From the NCBI GenBank assembly GCA_017541465.1, contig JAFXYZ010000048.1, positions 1 to 37,186 of the forward strand: a DNA stretch of 37,186 nt, given 5' to 3'. The position numbers and the translations under genes are program-made. The DNA comes from a bacterium. Lineage in GTDB: Bacteria > Cyanobacteriota > Vampirovibrionia > Gastranaerophilales > Gastranaerophilaceae. Within the stretch, counting starts at the first letter, position 1, and every line of letters starts with the position of its first letter. The notes under the pieces were generated by a model. The model was given only the letters and a program-made list of their open reading frames with translations. It did no database searches and was not told the origin of the DNA. Shown piece by piece: positions 21,962 through 29,101 of this stretch.

Positions 21962-24900
21962 TTAAATTATATTCTGGTTATCCGTATTTATATTAGGATT
22001 TATGTTATTTAGTTTACAAAAGGTACTGAAGACGGCCTGCGCATTTTTGATTTCTTCGAGCAGATTTGGAAGGTTCAGCTTCTTCGCTATTTCAAGGGCT
22101 TCAGATTGTACCTGAATTACATCAAGTGCCGTTTCGGCTTTTGCCTCCCCTGATGAAAGAAGCCTTATGCTCTCTTCCATATAATTTGCATAGCAGAGCA
22201 TAAGTTTAAACAGTGCATAAAACAGTCCGTTTTGCTGCGCTATGGAAATAGCCTGCTCTAAGTGCATTTTAGCTGATTCTAAGTCGCCGGTTATAATATA
22301 AACTTCTGCTATAAATTTCTTTAAATAGATAATGAAATTATAGTTGTTGATTTTTGGTCCCTGCGCAACCTCAAGAGCCTTCTGGGCTATATTTAGCGCT
22401 TTTTGTGCATCCTCTGTAATTAAAGTTGTCTGGGCTATTAAGTACCAGCAAAGAAGTGCGCCTATTGCGTTTTTCTCTTTTGCAAAATATGTAATCTGTT
22501 CATTATATATCCCAAGCGCCTTTTGGCTGTTCCCGTCTTTTTGGATAATATATCCCAAAATCAGCTTAATTATGTTTTTGACAAAATGTTCGTTGGAATT
22601 ATTCGCAAAAGTCGCCAGTTCAAATAACTCTTCTTTTGAAATATGACTGTCTGCTAAGATTTTATTAATCAGATTAATTAAGTTCCACTCTGAAAGAAGG
22701 TCACTTTCGGGTTCGTTTTGTGTGTATGCGTTTGCAATACCCGACAAAATCTGGCTTGAATTGTTTAAATCACCTGCCGAAGTGAAGGCAAGAGCCTCCG
22801 TCAGCATTGTTTTTGTCGTGAAATAGTCCTCCTGCACGGTCAGAGCGGGAAGATAGTTCTTTATTTCCCCGATGGTGTCAAAGGACATAGAATTGCCCTG
22901 CATAGCATAAGCGCTTGCAAGAATAATGTTTGCATTTATCCAGGCGGTCATAACCAGTTCTTTTAAATTCTTGTCCTTTATTCCTTTAAGTATTGAATCC
23001 TGAAGTATCGGGCTGATTTCATTAGTCATCAGATTAATGATTTCTTCGCAGTTTCCGATGCTGTACAGTGCCTTTAGTTTTCTTTCTTTGATTAAAGCAA
23101 GCTCAAGCTCTGATACTTCGCCGTTTGTATTCTTTATAACCAAATCTACCGCTTCAATGGCACCATAGTAATTTCCCGTCATATAACAGCTGTTGACAAG
23201 ATAACCGCAAAGGTCTATTGCTTTTGTTATATTGTTTGTCTTTTGGGCAAAGTCGATAGCATTTGAAAGATAGGATATTGCTTCCGCAGGTGAATTTTTG
23301 TAGTTCAGTTTCCCTATTTCTTCATAAACAGCATTTATCGTCTCTTCATTAGTACCCTCAGGGCTCTTATTCAACACCTTCAGCTGGTGTTTTCTTGCTA
23401 TTGTATATAAATTTATATCCCCGAGGTAAGAAATATACCCTGCGATTTTATTCAGGTTTTCAAAGATTTCTCTCTTATCGAAATAGTTTTCAAATTTCGT
23501 TATCGGATATACGGGTGAAGAGAAAATGAACTGAGATAAGGGTGCAATAGTGCTTTTGATGATATTATCATATTCCCCGCTGTCCTTTGCCTCCTGTTCA
23601 ATTATTTTCCAAACAGTATAACTTCTGAAGGTCGAAGAATACGGTGTCAAATCTTCAATATAGAGAATATTTTTCAGCTGGGTTAATACTGCGTTCGTGC
23701 TGTTATCCGTTAAATTCAGGCACTGCGCAAAAATCTGGTTATCAAACCTGTACCCCAGTACCGCAGCCGTATAAAGTGCCGTTCTGAGCTGGGGCATGAG
23801 TAATTTTAACCGCTCTTTTATTACAAGCTCAACAGAGGAAGGAATTGGCGAAGTCAGATTACTCTGCTGAAGTTTAAGCGCATTGTTATCAACAAAAATT
23901 ACGCCCGTTTCAAACAAAAACGCAATTATGTTTTCGAGCATCAGAGGTGAATTTTTTGATAAGTTTAAAAGAGTTTCCCACATTGATGTACCAAAAAGAT
24001 TTTCGTCATTGTTCAAATACTGAAGCGCAAAGGTTTTGAGTTCACTCTTCGTAAACGGTTTGATATGTACTGTCTTTGCCGTCTGTGCATTGACGTTTCT
24101 TGTATAGAAATATCCCTCTGCCGCCTTATCCTCCTGATATGTAATAAGTATCCTGAGTTTGCCGTCAAGAAGGTCTGTATCTATCATCTTTGTTAAGAGT
24201 TCAAACGACATTCCGTCTATAAAATCAAAATTATCGATAGCTATAACAAAATAATCTACATTTGAGGCTAAACCCGTAAGAACTTTTTCAATTAAAGTGA
24301 AAAGCCGCCCTTTGTTTTCGTTTATATTTGAGAATACGTCAGATTTATTCGGGTATAAGAAATTGACGAAATCGCTTATTTCATTATCCGATAACCCCGG
24401 GAAAGCCTGCTTTAAAGAGGATTTATTGCTCTTAATAAACGCATTTATGTTGTTTGAAGTAAACGTACTTAGCCCGAGAAGTGTCAAAAACGCGTCCTGG
24501 AAAGCTCCGAGTGCGCTTACCTGGGTTGACTGAGAGCATCTTGCATATAACTGAATTGCCGAAAAATTCTCGGAAAGAGTTCCCATAATCTGCTTCATTA
24601 AAACAGATTTGCCTAACCCTCCGTCACCCGTGATTGCGGTGATATTTTTATAGGGAGGAGTTGTCATTGACGTTACTGTTGACTGAAGCGCGGAAGCAAA
24701 AGTCGAATTTTCTATACTTGCCTGAATATGAGGTGTCTCAGGGCTCTCAAACGTTTCTTCTACACTGTCCTTTATCTCTGCATCAACTTTCGTGTCAAAG
24801 AAATCCTCCTCTTTGCTCTCTTCTTCCGTTGCCGTTTCATTATCGTCAGAAAGAAAAACGAGGTCGCTTTGCTCTTCTTCTTTAAAATTATTATTCTCTA

Positions 24901-25885
24901 GATTTTTTTTTTCTTCTGTTGAGGTTTCTTCAACAACTGCCTGAAAAGTAAGTTCTGTCTGAGTTTCCTGGGGACTATCCTGAATTAAAAGAGTGCCGTC
25001 CTGTATATCAAGAGGACTGTCTTGAATTTCCAGAGGACTGTCCTGAATTTCCAAATCAGGCTGAATATCAGGCTCTGTATTCAGAGGAATATCCTCCTCG
25101 CTGTTTGGTGCTAAAATAACATCTCTTATAGGTTCGGGTTCCGGCTTAGCTTTTTTCTTTCCGAAACCGAAGAAACCGCCACCACCCTCAGGTTTTGCGG
25201 GCTTTACTGGTTTTTGAGGTTGCTTGCTCTGAACACTTTTCCCTGCACCGGGTGACTTCATTATGCAGCTCTGTATTTTATTTGATCCATGTCTGATAGG
25301 GGGAGGTGTCGGAATTGAAGGCTCTGACTGAATGGGCTCTGCTTTTTGAACAGGCTCGGCAGGCATAGAGGGCTGAATTTCGCTCTGAGGTTCTTCCTCC
25401 TTTTTCTCCTGAGGGTTAAGAAAAACTATTTCCTCCGAAGTCTTTTCGGGCACTTCTTCAATTTTTTCCTGCTCCTGCTTTTTTGAATCAATATCAATAA
25501 AATCTATTGTCGGGTTAGTTTCTTCCGGTGTTGTTACTGCTTCGGGCTTCTTCTGGGAGTTGATAAAATCAGTCAGGCTCATTGCTTTTGGCTGAACCTC
25601 TTCAACAATTTTTTCTTCAGGTTTTGTTTCAGGAGTTTCGTTTATAACCTCCTCGTGTTCCTCCAGCGAAGCACCGCATTTTCTGCAATTTTTAGAGTAA
25701 TATAAATTGTTGCTTCCGCAGTTAAGGCAGACTTTTAAAAGCTCTGTACCGCATTCGATACAGTATTTTGAGCCAAAACGGTTTAATGTATTGCACTCAG
25801 GACAATACATATTAACTTTTATTCCGCAGTGCGGACATCTTAGTGCGTCATCAGGTATTTCGTTTTTACATTTAAAACATAACAT
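21962..25885 (-). CDS. Zinc-ribbon / STAND-type ATPase / TPR protein, 1307 residues
   Basis: The N-terminus holds three successive four-cysteine zinc ribbons: Cys3/6/17/20, 28/31/42/45 and 53/56/67/70. A long disordered E/P/Q-rich linker (about 75-400) follows, containing four near-repeats of an (L/I)xIQDSPL unit at 278-305. A P-loop NTPase then begins, with Walker A GDGGLGKS (420-427) and Walker B YFVIAIDN (545-552), and a winged-helix-like region. The C-terminal 500 or so residues are helical repeats resembling TPRs (for example ALNIAQKALEVAQ, SAKMHLEQAISIAQQNG). This is the layout of STAND signalling ATPases, in which repeats sense and the NTPase switches. No DNA-binding or enzymatic effector domain is visible. 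It is last in the operon with the sigma-like and anti-sigma-like genes (17-nt gap). Partner and signal unknown. Confidence 0.88.
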   Translation of the reverse strand: MLCFKCKNEIPDDALRCPHCGIKVNMYCPECNTLNRFGSKYCIECGTELLKVCLNCGSNNLYYSKNCRKCGASLEEHEEVINETPETKPEEKIVEEVQPKAMSLTDFINSQKKPEAVTTPEETNPTIDFIDIDSKKQEQEKIEEVPEKTSEEIVFLNPQEKKEEEPQSEIQPSMPAEPVQKAEPIQSEPSIPTPPPIRHGSNKIQSCIMKSPGAGKSVQSKQPQKPVKPAKPEGGGGFFGFGKKKAKPEPEPIRDVILAPNSEEDIPLNTEPDIQPDLEIQDSPLEIQDSPLDIQDGTLLIQDSPQETQTELTFQAVVEETSTEEKKNLENNNFKEEEQSDLVFLSDDNETATEEESKEEDFFDTKVDAEIKDSVEETFESPETPHIQASIENSTFASALQSTVTSMTTPPYKNITAITGDGGLGKSVLMKQIMGTLSENFSAIQLYARCSQSTQVSALGAFQDAFLTLLGLSTFTSNNINAFIKSNKSSLKQAFPGLSDNEISDFVNFLYPNKSDVFSNINENKGRLFTLIEKVLTGLASNVDYFVIAIDNFDFIDGMSFELLTKMIDTDLLDGKLRILITYQEDKAAEGYFYTRNVNAQTAKTVHIKPFTKSELKTFALQYLNNDENLFGTSMWETLLNLSKNSPLMLENIIAFLFETGVIFVDNNALKLQQSNLTSPIPSSVELVIKERLKLLMPQLRTALYTAAVLGYRFDNQIFAQCLNLTDNSTNAVLTQLKNILYIEDLTPYSSTFRSYTVWKIIEQEAKDSGEYDNIIKSTIAPLSQFIFSSPVYPITKFENYFDKREIFENLNKIAGYISYLGDINLYTIARKHQLKVLNKSPEGTNEETINAVYEEIGKLNYKNSPAEAISYLSNAIDFAQKTNNITKAIDLCGYLVNSCYMTGNYYGAIEAVDLVIKNTNGEVSELELALIKERKLKALYSIGNCEEIINLMTNEISPILQDSILKGIKDKNLKELVMTAWINANIILASAYAMQGNSMSFDTIGEIKNYLPALTVQEDYFTTKTMLTEALAFTSAGDLNNSSQILSGIANAYTQNEPESDLLSEWNLINLINKILADSHISKEELFELATFANNSNEHFVKNIIKLILGYIIQKDGNSQKALGIYNEQITYFAKEKNAIGALLCWYLIAQTTLITEDAQKALNIAQKALEVAQGPKINNYNFIIYLKKFIAEVYIITGDLESAKMHLEQAISIAQQNGLFYALFKLMLCYANYMEESIRLLSSGEAKAETALDVIQVQSEALEIAKKLNLPNLLEEIKNAQAVFSTFCKLNNINPNINTDNQNII

Positions 25886-25902: not shown

Positions 25903-26490
25903 TTATCTTTTGTATAGGTATGCACTTATCAGCTTGGATAAGTGAAGTAATCTCTTACAAACCTCACCCTGAGGAATGTTTAGTTCTTTTGAAATTTCGT
26001 TTTGTGTTTTTTTCTTTAAATATCTTAAATAGAAAATATCATATAATAATTTGCTCGGAATTTCCTTGTGAATGATACAGACTGTGTCGGTAATATTCTG
26101 CAGGAGCTCTCTTTTTATTTCTATATCTTCTGTTGTATCAACGGGATCGGGAAAATCATATTTAATAACCCTGTCACCTTCGCTGAAAGATACTTTTTCT
26201 TCTGCCGGGGAAGTATCCTCTTTAGAAGCTGTAACTTCAGCCTTTTTATATCTCTGCTTCTGCTTCAGAATGGAAATCATAGTTGTATTAACTATTTTTG
26301 AAACAAAATTTTCAGCCTTCTGTATATTATCAGAGGTGCTGAGGATAAGATATGCTTTATTGTAGGCTTCCTTGCAAAATTCCTCCTGCAAATCTTCGTT
26401 GCCCTGAAAATATGCATTTTCTGTTACAAATTTTTCTATAAGCTTTTGTTGTTCTTCTTGTTGCAGCACTTTACTTCCACTTTTTCCCAT
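25903..26490 (-). CDS. Sigma-70-like factor (ECF-like), 195 residues
   Basis: The C-terminal part (about 125-190) reads as sigma region 4: KLLYDIFYLRYLKKKTQNEISKEL..., with a helix-turn-helix at about 160-188 (TQNEISKELNIPQGEVCKRLL). The N-terminal half (about 12-80) has the length and helical pattern of region 2 (EEFCKEAYNKAYLILST...) but is divergent. A charged linker separates the halves, as in ECF factors. It lies 13 nt after the gene for a zinc-finger anti-sigma-like membrane protein, which supports the call. In cyanobacteria DUF1822 genes often neighbour sigma factor genes (my recollection, unchecked). A non-sigma HTH regulator is the main alternative. Confidence 0.7.
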   Translation of the reverse strand: MGKSGSKVLQQEEQQKLIEKFVTENAYFQGNEDLQEEFCKEAYNKAYLILSTSDNIQKAENFVSKIVNTTMISILKQKQRYKKAEVTASKEDTSPAEEKVSFSEGDRVIKYDFPDPVDTTEDIEIKRELLQNITDTVCIIHKEIPSKLLYDIFYLRYLKKKTQNEISKELNIPQGEVCKRLLHLSKLISAYLYKR

Positions 26491-26503
26491 ATAATAACAT
26501 AAA

Positions 26504-28459
26504 CTAAAGTTTTATGACCATTTTAACATAATATTCATCTAACTTTAGCTCTTCCTGAGTAGCAGCAGGAATCTGAATAGAACTTGTTGCTTCTCTTAAA
26601 CTTTGCATAATTGCTTCATCTATTGATTTAACTCCGCTTGACGGCGAAATTCTTGAAGATTTGATTAAACCTTCGGGTGTGATAATAACCTCGACAACAA
26701 CATTGTTGCTGTAAGGCGCCTGAGTAATACTGTTTGTATTCAGTTTAAATTTTGCTCTGAACCTCTTGTCGATTATCTGAAGATAGCTTCTGAAATCCGG
26801 GTTTGTCAAAAGTGAATTTTGGGCAACCCAGTTAAGGCTTTTCAGCTTAACAAACCCTGTATTATTGTTGATGTTTTTAACAATTGTACTTTCCATTCCG
26901 CTTCCGCCTAACTCACCCGGAATATCTGTCGGGGTTGACGTATTACTTGATTTTGGAGCAATCAGGAAGGAATAAATACCCCAAATCGCAAGAACACCTA
27001 TAAGTGCAATAACCAGAAGGTGGCTTTTGGGCTTTTCCTGTGTTGACTGAGGAGGTATTTTGGATATTAATTCCTCTGAAACATTTTCCCCGGAGCTTTC
27101 AATAACACCGTCATCTTTTGTGAAGGTATCCGTTATATCCGGGTTTTCCTTTGTTTCTTTTGTAAAGGTATCAACCCCTTCCCCTTCAACTATTGTGTAA
27201 TCTTCCGATTTTTCTTCTCCGTAAATGGGCTGACCGAATTCGTCATAATCTATTATGACTTTTTCCGTTTTGCCTTCAGTTGCCCTGTGTTCGCCTGTTG
27301 ATTTCTTTATGGCTTTTTTATTTTCATATTCCGTATTAAACATTTCATCGGGAATATCTTTAAGAGAATCCGCAAGTGACGGACGGACAGGGGGAGCCTG
27401 TTTGGGGGCTTCTTCCTTTTCAAATCTTATTTCTGTCGGCTTATTTTGCCCCTGAAGCATTGTCTCTTCAAGTGTAGGAACATCCTGCAAAAACAGAGAA
27501 TCTTCACTACCTAATTTAATAGGATTATCGTCAGGTTTAAGCTCAATTTTCGGCTCTTCAAGAGTTCCCTCCTCTTTCGGCTTCCGGGGAGTTACTTTCG
27601 GAGTGTTTTCAAACAAGCCGTCTATTAAAACATCATTTTTTTCTTTTGTTAAATTTTTTATTCTTTCTTCTTTTTCTTCCTGTTCTCTCTGATGTTTTGC
27701 TGCCTCGTCCTCTTCCTCATCATCCTGAGCATTGAGAGCACCGATTATATTGAGAGATTCATCTTCAAATAAATCGTTATAGTGTTCAAGGTTTGTTGCA
27801 ATCATGTCAAACCCGCAGAAATTGATTAACTCTGTTCTGCAGACGGGACAATTAAGAAGGTGATGAAGGAGTTTTTGTTTTGTGAAGTTATCGGCTTCAT
27901 CATCAAGGTAAGAAAGAATTTTCGTATTAAAGAATTTATGGTCTTTTTCACTGTTATCAACAGTGTTTTCTTCTCTGAGTTCCTGAAGAAGGTCGGACAT
28001 GTCCTTTAATTCGTCAAAACCCGATTTGTAATATAAATTATTATATTTCTCATATTTGAGGTTCTTAGGCGATACATATCCTATAAACTGAGGTGTCTGA
28101 AGGTTTTTGTCTATTGTTGCAACGAGATAAAAATCAGGAAGAATTTCATTTTCAAAGTGTGAAACGGGAATATAGAAGCACTCTCCCGGCATCGCAAGTC
28201 TGACATCAATTCTCCAGTTGTTTACATAGAGGTCGGTAATCTCATATTCTTCACTTAATTTTGCAACCTTATAGATGTTCTTTGTATTTGATACTTTAAG
28301 ATGCTGCTGCATGAAGAAATTAGCAAGCGAATTGATAATAACCAAAGACGCATACATTCTTTTTCTGTTGTTTGTATCTTTGATTTTTAATGAATATATA
28401 CCCGAAAACCTTAGTCCGTCTTGAGTAACTTTTAAGTCGATATTTTCTTCAGATTTCAT
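26504..28459 (-). CDS. DUF1822 + anti-sigma zinc finger + transmembrane + TonB C-terminal domain protein
   Basis: The 651-residue protein has four recognisable parts. Residues about 35-135 resemble DUF1822 (a WRIDVRLAMPGECFYIP core, then FIGYVSPKNL). Residues about 180-212 (LSYLDDEAD...HHLLNCPVCRTEL) fit the H-x3-C-x2-C zinc-finger anti-sigma motif (His200, Cys204, Cys207). A disordered acidic linker (about 245-475) leads to one membrane helix (480-499). Residues about 553-651 (VVVEVIITPEGLIKSSRISP, SSGVKSIDEAIMQSLREA) match a TonB/TolA C-terminal domain, which would be periplasmic. The cytoplasmic end could hold the sigma-like factor encoded next, while the outer end senses or couples to the outer membrane. 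GAGATGAGG is the ribosome-binding site. It is first in the operon. Confidence 0.8.
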   Translation of the reverse strand: MKSEENIDLKVTQDGLRFSGIYSLKIKDTNNRKRMYASLVIINSLANFFMQQHLKVSNTKNIYKVAKLSEEYEITDLYVNNWRIDVRLAMPGECFYIPVSHFENEILPDFYLVATIDKNLQTPQFIGYVSPKNLKYEKYNNLYYKSGFDELKDMSDLLQELREENTVDNSEKDHKFFNTKILSYLDDEADNFTKQKLLHHLLNCPVCRTELINFCGFDMIATNLEHYNDLFEDESLNIIGALNAQDDEEEDEAAKHQREQEEKEERIKNLTKEKNDVLIDGLFENTPKVTPRKPKEEGTLEEPKIELKPDDNPIKLGSEDSLFLQDVPTLEETMLQGQNKPTEIRFEKEEAPKQAPPVRPSLADSLKDIPDEMFNTEYENKKAIKKSTGEHRATEGKTEKVIIDYDEFGQPIYGEEKSEDYTIVEGEGVDTFTKETKENPDITDTFTKDDGVIESSGENVSEELISKIPPQSTQEKPKSHLLVIALIGVLAIWGIYSFLIAPKSSNTSTPTDIPGELGGSGMESTIVKNINNNTGFVKLKSLNWVAQNSLLTNPDFRSYLQIIDKRFRAKFKLNTNSITQAPYSNNVVVEVIITPEGLIKSSRISPSSGVKSIDEAIMQSLREATSSIQIPAATQEELKLDEYYVKMVIKL

Positions 28460-28549
28460 AATTCCTCATCTCGATATTTTATTATATATCAAATCCTTCA
28501 ATTCTGTCTTTATCTTAACAATATAAATGCTTCATTTTTTGAAAAGGTA

Positions 28550-28558
28550 TGCTATAAT
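28550..28558 (+). promoter_or_regulatory. Extended -10 promoter with a long leader
   Basis: TGCTATAAT (28550-28558) is a strong extended -10 box reading toward the gene at 28700. Transcription would start near 28565, leaving an untranslated leader of about 135 nt with two ribosome-binding-like sites (TAGGAG near 28662, TTAGGAGG just before the gene). The rest of 28460-28699 holds the promoter of the divergent anti-sigma operon and no supported gene. Confidence 0.5.
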
Positions 28559-28699
28559 TATTCTCAGAGAGAATTTAAAACAAAAAAAATGTGTGTTATT
28601 AATGTAACAATTTGTAAACCTGGAAAACCAAAAGAGCAATTAAGATTTCTCACGTGTTTTATAGGAGTATCTAATTAAGAAGTAAGTTAGGAGGTTTAT

Positions 28700-29101
28700 A
28701 TGAATATCAGTCCGGTAAGTTTTGGAAATGTTGACGCTACATCAAGATTTCAGGAAATGATTGCAAAACCGCAGGCATACACTCTTCAGAATACTGCAGT
28801 TGCATCAACTCCCGTAGGTGAAGCCCCTAAGAAAAAAGGCGGTTTCCTTAAAAAAGCATTATTGACTATCCTCGCAGTCTGCGGTGCTATCGCAGCTATT
28901 GCATATGCAACAAAGAAAGGCAAATTTGATGTTAACCCCGAAGCAGGCAATAGAGTCGTAAATACCGTTAAATCAGCTCTCGGCAAAGTAGGTAATGCCG
29001 TAAACGATTTCGCGGCAAAACACTCCGGTGACATTCAGAAGGCTAAAGATGCAGTACAGGAAGCAGCTGAAAAAGTTACCAAAAAAGCTCCTCAGGCATA
29101 A
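28700..29101 (+). CDS. Small single-pass membrane protein with N-terminal VSFG motif
   Basis: The ATG follows an excellent TTAGGAGG site. The 133-residue protein starts MNISPVSFGNVD, has a polar stretch, then a lysine cluster (KKKGGFLKK) and one membrane helix (about 50-70). A helical, lysine-rich tail follows (VKSALGKVGNAVNDFAAKH... QKAKDAVQEAAEKVTKK). The strong promoter, ribosome-binding site and terminator suggest high expression. The tail resembles amphipathic LEA/apolipoprotein-like helices. No named family; the N-terminal motif recurs in the proteins at 15.6 and 31.1 kb. Confidence 0.8.
   Translation: MNISPVSFGNVDATSRFQEMIAKPQAYTLQNTAVASTPVGEAPKKKGGFLKKALLTILAVCGAIAAIAYATKKGKFDVNPEAGNRVVNTVKSALGKVGNAVNDFAAKHSGDIQKAKDAVQEAAEKVTKKAPQA

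What the first reader, a model, noticed from the sequence alone, without database searches (positions are those of the whole stretch)
25903..28459. Sigma-like factor paired with a DUF1822 / zinc-finger anti-sigma / TonB-C transmembrane protein
The 651-residue protein joins a DUF1822-like domain, an H-x3-C-x2-C anti-sigma zinc finger, one membrane helix and a periplasmic TonB/TolA C-terminal domain. A sigma-70-like gene follows after 13 nt. TonB C-terminal domains normally touch outer-membrane transporters, so this could couple outer-membrane state directly to sigma release without a separate FecR-type relay. I know of no described system with this architecture.
Basis: partly seen in the sequence, partly recalled or inferred. 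Interest (0 to 1): 0.8.

Follow-up and report, generated by a model that had tools for sequence, protein, structure and literature searches.

The report
Envelope-spanning anti-sigma switch in gut cyanobacteria
Non-photosynthetic gut relatives of cyanobacteria carry an undescribed three-gene switch: an RNA-polymerase sigma factor, a membrane-spanning inhibitor with an unusual combination of domains, and a signalling-type ATPase; it looks like a core way for these uncultured bacteria to turn events at the cell envelope into gene expression.

Summary
At 25903-28459 (minus strand) a 651-aa protein (DUF1822-like N-domain, zinc anti-sigma domain, one membrane helix, TonB/TolA-like C-domain) precedes, by 13 nt, a 195-aa sigma factor that models and searches as an ECF sigma (sigma2 + sigma4). 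The trio is nearly universal in Candidatus Gastranaerophilales: 78 of 80 fetched sigma loci have the anti-sigma gene, or its C-terminal part, directly upstream; 73 have the ATPase downstream. Most anti-sigma genes carry a conserved ECF-type promoter (TTTTGGAATATTTTTTTT-N5-TGTAATCT), even in two genomes where the sigma gene lies elsewhere, which links the two functionally. The window's own genome lacks it.

Sigma/anti-sigma pairing is well supported. Contact with TonB-dependent transporters is not the general function: 43 of 51 genomes with the TonB_C anti-sigma have no detectable transporter, and the TonB-ExbB coupling motif is absent. The DUF1822 part resembles the PD-(D/E)XK nuclease fold, with a conserved D-x8-D-x-R motif. 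DUF1822 next to a sigma gene is already known from phototrophic cyanobacteria. Best filed as a new variant of the ECF/class I anti-sigma kind.

The parts
26504..28459 (-). anti-sigma gene, 651 aa: DUF1822-N, zinc anti-sigma domain, acidic linker, one TM helix, TonB/TolA-like C-domain
27965..28447 (-). DUF1822 N-terminal domain (residues 5-165), PD-(D/E)XK-like fold by model; conserved D76, D85-x-R87
27755..27952 (-). class I anti-sigma domain (residues 170-235) with zinc ligands H174, H200, C204, C207
27038..27754 (-). acidic low-complexity cytoplasmic linker, residues 236-474, net charge -29; total protein length varies 557-1805 aa in relatives
26960..27016 (-). single membrane helix, residues 482-500
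26582..26785 (-). TonB_2/TonB_C (TonB/TolA C-terminal-like) domain, residues 559-626, predicted periplasmic
25903..26490 (-). ECF-type sigma factor gene, 195 aa
26260..26460 (-). sigma region 2, residues 11-77
25909..26133 (-). sigma region 4, residues 120-194; recognition helix IPQGEVCKRL deviates from the order-wide SQ[SAG]E[VI]SKRL
21962..25885 (-). third gene, 1307 aa: double zinc ribbon, P-loop (AAA_16/STAND-like) ATPase, TPR
24605..24628 (-). Walker A of the third gene, GDGGLGKS, residues 420-427
28460..28699 (.). intergenic region ahead of the operon, where relatives carry the GGAAT...TGTAATCT promoter; not detectable in this genome

Best explanation
The trio is an ECF sigma factor switch. 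(1) The 195-aa protein is an ECF sigma with sigma2 and sigma4 only. (2) The 651-aa protein is its membrane-bound class I anti-sigma: the helical, often zinc-containing domain behind the DUF1822-N domain holds the sigma in the cytoplasm. (3) One TM helix carries a TonB/TolA-like domain into the periplasm, where it senses the state of the envelope by binding a partner that is usually not a TonB-dependent transporter; an outer-membrane or peptidoglycan-associated partner, of the sort TolA C-domains contact, is my guess. (4) The signal passes through the TM helix, by regulated proteolysis or conformational change, and releases the sigma. (5) Free sigma starts transcription at a GGAAT/TGTAATCT promoter ahead of the anti-sigma gene, which raises inhibitor and sigma together and resets the switch. 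(6) The zinc-ribbon/STAND-like ATPase encoded downstream is a co-produced signalling partner whose place in the chain is unknown. Shown by computation: domains, folds, gene unit, conserved promoter, order-wide distribution. Inferred: sigma binding, topology, sensing, the release step, positive autoregulation, and the role of the ATPase.
For: Sigma: TIGR02937 6.5e-10 over residues 13-186; profile finds SigW at 4.1e-4 over nearly the full length; the model's Foldseek list is headed by ECF sigmas (SigmaE, AlgU, SigL, SigH, SigW further down; prob 1.00, E from 0.0019) and its VIA list is sigma factors only, sigma4 aligning at 1.8-2.3 A in the best cases. Linker between sigma2 and sigma4 about 42 residues. 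Anti-sigma: the profile's best PDB hit is RsiW (E 0.0082, profile positions 176-226), the partner of SigW; RslA aligns to residues 172-231 (Z 4.5, rmsd 5.3, 56 residues); H174 plus H200-x3-C204-x2-C207 are present together in 47/59 and lost together in whole clades while the helical segment stays. Class I anti-sigma groups mix zinc and non-zinc forms (PMC7406223). Gene unit: 78/80 loci with the anti-sigma gene or its C-terminal part directly upstream of sigma, 73/80 with the ATPase directly downstream. Promoter: word pair GGAAT-N18-ATCTA in 23/71 upstream regions against a shuffle maximum of 6 for any pair; fixed-spacing motif 36-133 nt ahead of the anti-sigma gene in 57/70; 66/72 regions score 20 bits or more against a shuffle maximum of 8.5 (matrix trained on the same set). 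It stays on the anti-sigma gene where sigma is unlinked: G040 (35.3 bits) and, with spacing one shorter, G045 (8.9 bits). Topology: one TM window in 70/72, net charge higher on the N side in 47, lower in 17.
Against: No contact between sigma and anti-sigma was computed. The window genome itself lacks the promoter motif, and four genomes with dispersed genes lack it too (G035, G020, G002, G025). Where the ATPase gene is unlinked it does not carry the motif, so it is not a necessary output. Genome-wide, well-matching sites are almost all at the anti-sigma gene, which leaves the wider regulon unknown. The periplasmic partner is unidentified. Positive-inside evidence for topology is modest.
Confidence: 0.68

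Rival explanations
1. One reading: the TonB_C domain touches TonB-dependent transporters directly and releases sigma on transport, a FecR-free form of cell-surface signalling.
For: The domain is homologous to TonB/TolA C-termini; the window genome has one TonB-dependent receptor.
Against: 43 of 51 genomes with the anti-sigma have no receptor by barrel or plug model; no S-x3-H in 72 TM segments; a dedicated TonB sits beside ExbB in the window genome.
Confidence: 0.04
2. The decisive input is cytoplasmic: the DUF1822 domain and/or the STAND-like ATPase sense a cytosolic ligand and control sigma release, while TM helix and TonB-like domain only anchor the complex.
For: DUF1822 sits next to sigma genes in phototrophic cyanobacteria in soluble-looking proteins of about 390 aa; the ATPase is kept with the pair; D76, D85 and R87 are among the best conserved residues; Kaur et al. 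2021 group DUF1822 and ECF sigma with caspase/STAND-type systems (PMC8195603).
Against: The periplasmic domain has invariant W544, Y559, G609 and D614, more than an anchor needs, and is kept throughout the order.
Confidence: 0.22
3. The sigma-like protein no longer works as a sigma factor and acts as a DNA-binding regulator or adaptor.
For: Region 2 is divergent: Pfam finds it in 7/20 relatives only; several usual region-2 residues are changed.
Against: Complete sigma2/sigma4 model, conserved region-2 blocks NEDL..DF and GR.RR, and an ECF-like two-box promoter with fixed 13-nt spacing ahead of the partner gene.
Confidence: 0.05
4. The long protein is a TolA/TonB-like envelope structural protein and its neighbourhood to a sigma gene is incidental.
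For: TonB_2 is its best Pfam hit.
Against: Anti-sigma domain with all-or-none zinc site, RsiW match, near-invariant adjacency to sigma, sigma-type promoter on the gene even when unlinked.
Confidence: 0.01

Closest known systems
SigW/RsiW (Bacillus subtilis) and other ECF sigma / membrane-bound class I anti-sigma pairs
   Same: Two-domain ECF sigma, adjacent single-pass anti-sigma with H-x3-C-x2-C domain, autoregulatory-looking two-box promoter; best profile hits in the PDB include SigW and RsiW.
   Different: The anti-sigma has an extra DUF1822 (nuclease-fold-like) domain in front, a very long acidic linker and a TonB/TolA-like periplasmic domain, lies upstream of sigma, and comes with a STAND-like ATPase gene.
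FecI/FecR cell-surface signalling
   Same: ECF sigma, single-pass regulator reaching into the periplasm.
   Different: No FecR domain match; receptors absent from most genomes; sigma-type promoter ahead of the regulator gene, whereas FecI-like ECFs are cited as exceptions to autoregulation (PMC8103513).
DUF1822 + ECF sigma + CHAT/EACC2 neighbourhoods of phototrophic cyanobacteria (Kaur et al. 2021, PMC8195603)
   Same: DUF1822 gene next to a sigma gene: 26 of 30 fetched loci have a sigma-like ORF directly upstream; profiles of the two DUF1822-N groups align over 137 columns, E 2.4e-6, probability 89%.
   Different: There: full-length DUF1822 of about 390 aa, sigma first, CHAT/CHASE2 genes nearby. 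Here: N-terminal half of DUF1822 only, fused to anti-sigma, TM and TonB-like parts, anti-sigma gene first.
SigG/SapG of cyanobacteria (PMC2758279)
   Same: Cyanobacterial ECF sigma co-transcribed with, and binding, a neighbouring regulator (literature).
   Different: No sequence relation between SapG and this anti-sigma was tested here.
TonB / TolA C-terminal domains
   Same: Homologous C-terminal domain behind one TM helix.
   Different: No ExbB/ExbD coupling motif in the TM segment; fused to an anti-sigma domain.

Membership tests
ECF (group IV) sigma factors | sigma2 and sigma4 only, linker under about 50 residues | tested here: met
   Model helices 11-77 and 120-194 with a stretch of about 42 residues between, mostly of low confidence; sigma folds only in VIA.
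ECF (group IV) sigma factors | family model match | tested here: inconclusive
   TIGR02937 6.5e-10, 38.9 bits against cut-off 42.9; Sigma70_r4 over cut-off; Sigma70_r2 in 7/20 relatives.
ECF (group IV) sigma factors | GGAA-type -35 with A/T tract and a -10 at fixed spacing ahead of its own operon | tested here: met
   Met in relatives; not found in the window genome.
ECF (group IV) sigma factors | directs RNA polymerase to that promoter | not testable with these tools
   Needs in vitro transcription or a reporter.
Class I anti-sigma (ASDI), zinc-binding form | H-x3-C-x2-C in a helical domain | tested here: met
   H200-x3-C204-x2-C207 plus H174; RsiW E 0.0082; RslA Z 4.5.
Class I anti-sigma (ASDI), zinc-binding form | gene adjacent to and cotranscribed with the sigma gene | tested here: met
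   78/80 loci have the gene or its C-terminal part directly upstream; cotranscription itself is inferred from spacing.
Class I anti-sigma (ASDI), zinc-binding form | binds sigma between or around sigma2 and sigma4 | not testable with these tools
   No complex prediction available.
FecI/FecR cell-surface signalling | FecR domain and a TonB-dependent receptor with signalling domain | tested here: not met
   No FecR match in Pfam or NCBIfam; receptors absent in 43/51 genomes with the anti-sigma.
TonB energy transducers | S-x3-H motif in the TM segment | tested here: not met
   0 of 72.
TonB energy transducers | TonB/TolA-type C-terminal domain | tested here: met
   PF13103 in 44/44.
DUF1822 (PF08852) | full-length family match | tested here: not met
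   Only profile positions about 29-168 of 370 match, below cut-off in the window protein; many relatives are over the cut-off.
PD-(D/E)XK nuclease superfamily | core fold | tested here: inconclusive
   Nearly all of the 50 listed VIA rows are nuclease-fold entries, Z 4.3-8.2, but the scores are in the range the tool calls middling; no significant Foldseek hit.
PD-(D/E)XK nuclease superfamily | D ... (D/E)-x-K catalytic motif | tested here: not met
   D76 ... D85-x-R87: the lysine is replaced by arginine (R in 53/59).

The most novel reading that the evidence does not exclude
The DUF1822 domain is a PD-(D/E)XK-derived nucleic-acid-binding or cleaving module, so that one anti-sigma protein reads two inputs, nucleic acid or a related ligand in the cytoplasm and envelope state through the TonB/TolA-like domain, with a STAND-like ATPase as third component: an innate-immunity-like sigma switch shared, in different forms, by phototrophic and gut cyanobacteria.
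Probability: 0.12. Interest if true: 0.85.

Novelty: new variant of a known kind. Interest (0 to 1): 0.6.

Why it matters
Gastranaerophilales are mostly uncultured, largely gut-dwelling bacteria, and none of the papers found here describes a sigma-factor circuit in them. This trio is close to a core gene set of the order, comes with a predicted promoter that can be tested in a laboratory host, and gives DUF1822, a family of unknown function spread through the Cyanobacteria, a likely place in sigma-factor control and a possible fold. It also shows a TonB/TolA-like domain serving as part of an anti-sigma factor in genomes that mostly have no TonB-dependent transporters, so such domains should not be read automatically as transporter contacts.

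Tried and rejected
1) TonB-dependent transporter coupling: tested by barrel and plug searches in 59 genomes and rejected as the general function. 2) Zinc as an essential sensor: the ligands are lost together in whole clades with the helical domain kept, so zinc is more likely structural; compare PMC7406223. 3) A wide regulon by promoter search: strict and relaxed patterns in 59 genomes gave good matches almost only ahead of the anti-sigma gene; the off-operon sites looked at mostly lie inside ORFs or lack a convincing downstream gene. 4) Foldseek on anti-sigma residues 1-248: no significant PDB match; VIA as a second look points to PD-(D/E)XK. 5) Defence systems: only trivial PADLOC matches. 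6) Literature: no paper with all terms on ECF, anti-sigma, TonB, zinc finger and cyanobacteria and none on Gastranaerophilales with sigma factors; DUF1822 in two papers. 8) The sigma family outside the order: only weak matches, mostly to the HTH of other sigmas, in other families of the class. 9) A sigma/anti-sigma complex was not modelled: the structure tool takes single chains and returns no coordinates.

Full report
What is there. On the minus strand three genes follow each other closely: 26504-28459 (651 aa), 13 nt, 25903-26490 (195 aa), 17 nt, 21962-25885 (1307 aa).

The sigma factor. Pfam gives Sigma70_r4 over cut-off and NCBIfam gives the ECF superfamily model over residues 13-186 at 6.5e-10, a little under its cut-off. 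A profile of 20 relatives finds SigW at 4.1e-4 along most of its length. An AlphaFold2 model on 56 sequences (pLDDT 82.7; pTM 0.40, as expected for two domains on a flexible linker) matches ECF sigma factors at the head of the Foldseek list, and every row of the VIA list is a sigma factor. Region 2 is divergent, region 4 conventional.

The anti-sigma. The N-terminal 248 residues give a confident model (pLDDT 88, pTM 0.83). Residues 170-235 are an anti-sigma domain: the family profile's best PDB match is RsiW, RslA aligns there, and the four ligands H174, H200, C204 and C207 are kept together in 47 of 59 sequences and lost together in whole clades. Residues 5-165 are the N-terminal half of DUF1822 (52 of 59 relatives match). 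VIA aligns this part with PD-(D/E)XK nucleases and relatives (Hjc, NhoI, DpnI, SPARDA, EcoRV, HincII, TSEN15), Z up to 8.2 over 111 residues at 3.3 A. That consistency is suggestive, but Z of this size is called middling by the tool and Foldseek finds nothing significant. The conserved D76 (58/59), D85 (56/59) and R87 (53/59) are spaced like the superfamily's motif, with R in place of K; a subgroup of phototroph DUF1822 shows D-x8-E-x-R (read from the alignment). A long acidic linker, one TM helix and a TonB/TolA-like domain (TonB_2 in 44 of 44; invariant W544, Y559, G609, D614) complete the protein. Length varies from 557 to 1805 aa, with the conserved domains at the two ends.

The third protein. 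Double zinc ribbon, a P-loop ATPase matched by AAA_16 and, weakly, NACHT and NB-ARC models, and TPR. The cysteine pairs are present in all 69 sequences checked and the P-loop GK[ST] in nearly all. Many genomes carry a second, more distant copy.

Conservation. Sigma: 51 of 59 relatives; anti-sigma: 52; ATPase: 58. In 80 named loci fetched with a sigma profile (Candidatus Gastranaerophilales in most titles) the anti-sigma gene, or its C-terminal part where the gene is split, stands directly upstream of sigma in 78, and the ATPase directly downstream in 73. In a few genomes the three are dispersed yet all or most still present. In other families of the class only weak matches appear, so this sigma family is order-specific. 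Some of the same species occur in both genome collections, so the two counts are not fully independent.

The promoter. Before any matrix was built, the word pair GGAAT-N18-ATCTA occurred in 23 of 71 regions ahead of the anti-sigma gene, against at most 6 for any pair in shuffles. The full motif, TTTTGGAATATTTTTTTT-N5-TGTAATCT with constant spacing, lies 36-133 nt ahead of the annotated start in 57 of 70; allowing for mis-called starts 66 of 72 regions score at least 20 bits against a shuffle maximum of 8.5 (the matrix was trained on the same set, so this number is partly circular). GGAA with an A/T tract is a usual -35 type of ECF sigmas, and autoregulation is common among them (PMC8103513). 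In G040 the sigma gene lies elsewhere in the genome, but the anti-sigma gene still carries the motif at 35.3 bits; in G045 the same promoter is present with spacing one base shorter; the unlinked sigma and ATPase genes do not carry it. This is the strongest computed evidence that the sigma controls the anti-sigma gene. The window's own genome has no such site. Its sigma4 recognition helix is also the only one among those compared with IPQGEVCKRL in place of SQ..[VI]SKRL. A joint change of promoter and helix is possible, but this is one case.

The TonB question. TonB-dependent receptors occur in 11 of 59 genomes by two models. Of 51 genomes with the TonB-like anti-sigma (counted), 8 have one. 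The TM segments lack the S-x3-H motif (0 of 72; the role of the motif is my own knowledge), and the window genome has a separate TonB next to ExbB. So the domain is homologous to TonB/TolA C-termini, but its partner is in general something else.

Relation to known systems. In phototrophic cyanobacteria DUF1822 genes also lie beside sigma genes: 26 of 30 fetched loci have a sigma-like ORF directly upstream (Pfam confirms two that were tested), and CHAT/CHASE2 genes lie next to two of the loci tested. Kaur et al. 2021 noted ECF sigma and DUF1822 next to EACC2/caspase genes (PMC8195603) and called DUF1822 a TPR protein; the model here suggests that its N-terminal part is not TPR. The two DUF1822-N groups are related by profile comparison (E 2.4e-6, probability 89%). 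The association of DUF1822 with sigma factors is therefore known; the fusion to an anti-sigma domain, TM helix and TonB-like domain, the order-wide trio with a STAND-like ATPase, and the promoter were not found described in the papers available here.

Verdict. An ECF sigma / class I anti-sigma switch of new architecture, well supported as such; the mechanism of sensing is open. New variant of a known kind; interest 0.6.

Noticed in passing
window 28700-29101 (+); L080, L116, L119, L121, L124, L227, L229-L231, L234, L235: A small gene upstream of the operon, in divergent orientation in the window, encodes proteins of about 125-150 aa that begin M-I-[SN]-x-V-S-x-[VIL]-[SN]-F-[KR]-G in many relatives (window: MNISPVSFGNVD). 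A pattern of this kind is about threefold enriched at N-termini over other positions, though largely through this one family; it could be a targeting signal.
   Followed up: partly
G000 genome; window 25945-25977 and 28460-28699: The window species has lost the order-wide sigma promoter and has a changed sigma4 recognition helix (IPQGEVCKRL), possibly a joint change of promoter and reader.
   Followed up: partly
L127:3842-5272, L071:5911-6801: In two lineages the sigma gene in the trio encodes 476 aa and 296 aa instead of about 195, with no Pfam match for the 476-aa form.
   Followed up: no
G035, G020, G002, G025, G040, G045: The trio genes are scattered in the genome in these lineages but all or most persist, as expected of a functional unit.
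   Followed up: partly
L108:802-1461, L111:799-1461: In some phototrophic cyanobacteria the ORF directly ahead of DUF1822 is a 220-aa protein with no sigma match in Pfam, perhaps a very divergent sigma factor.
   Followed up: no
genomes: Many Gastranaerophilales genomes hold a second, more distant protein of about 1170 aa with the same zinc ribbon and ATPase/TPR layout outside the operon.
   Followed up: no
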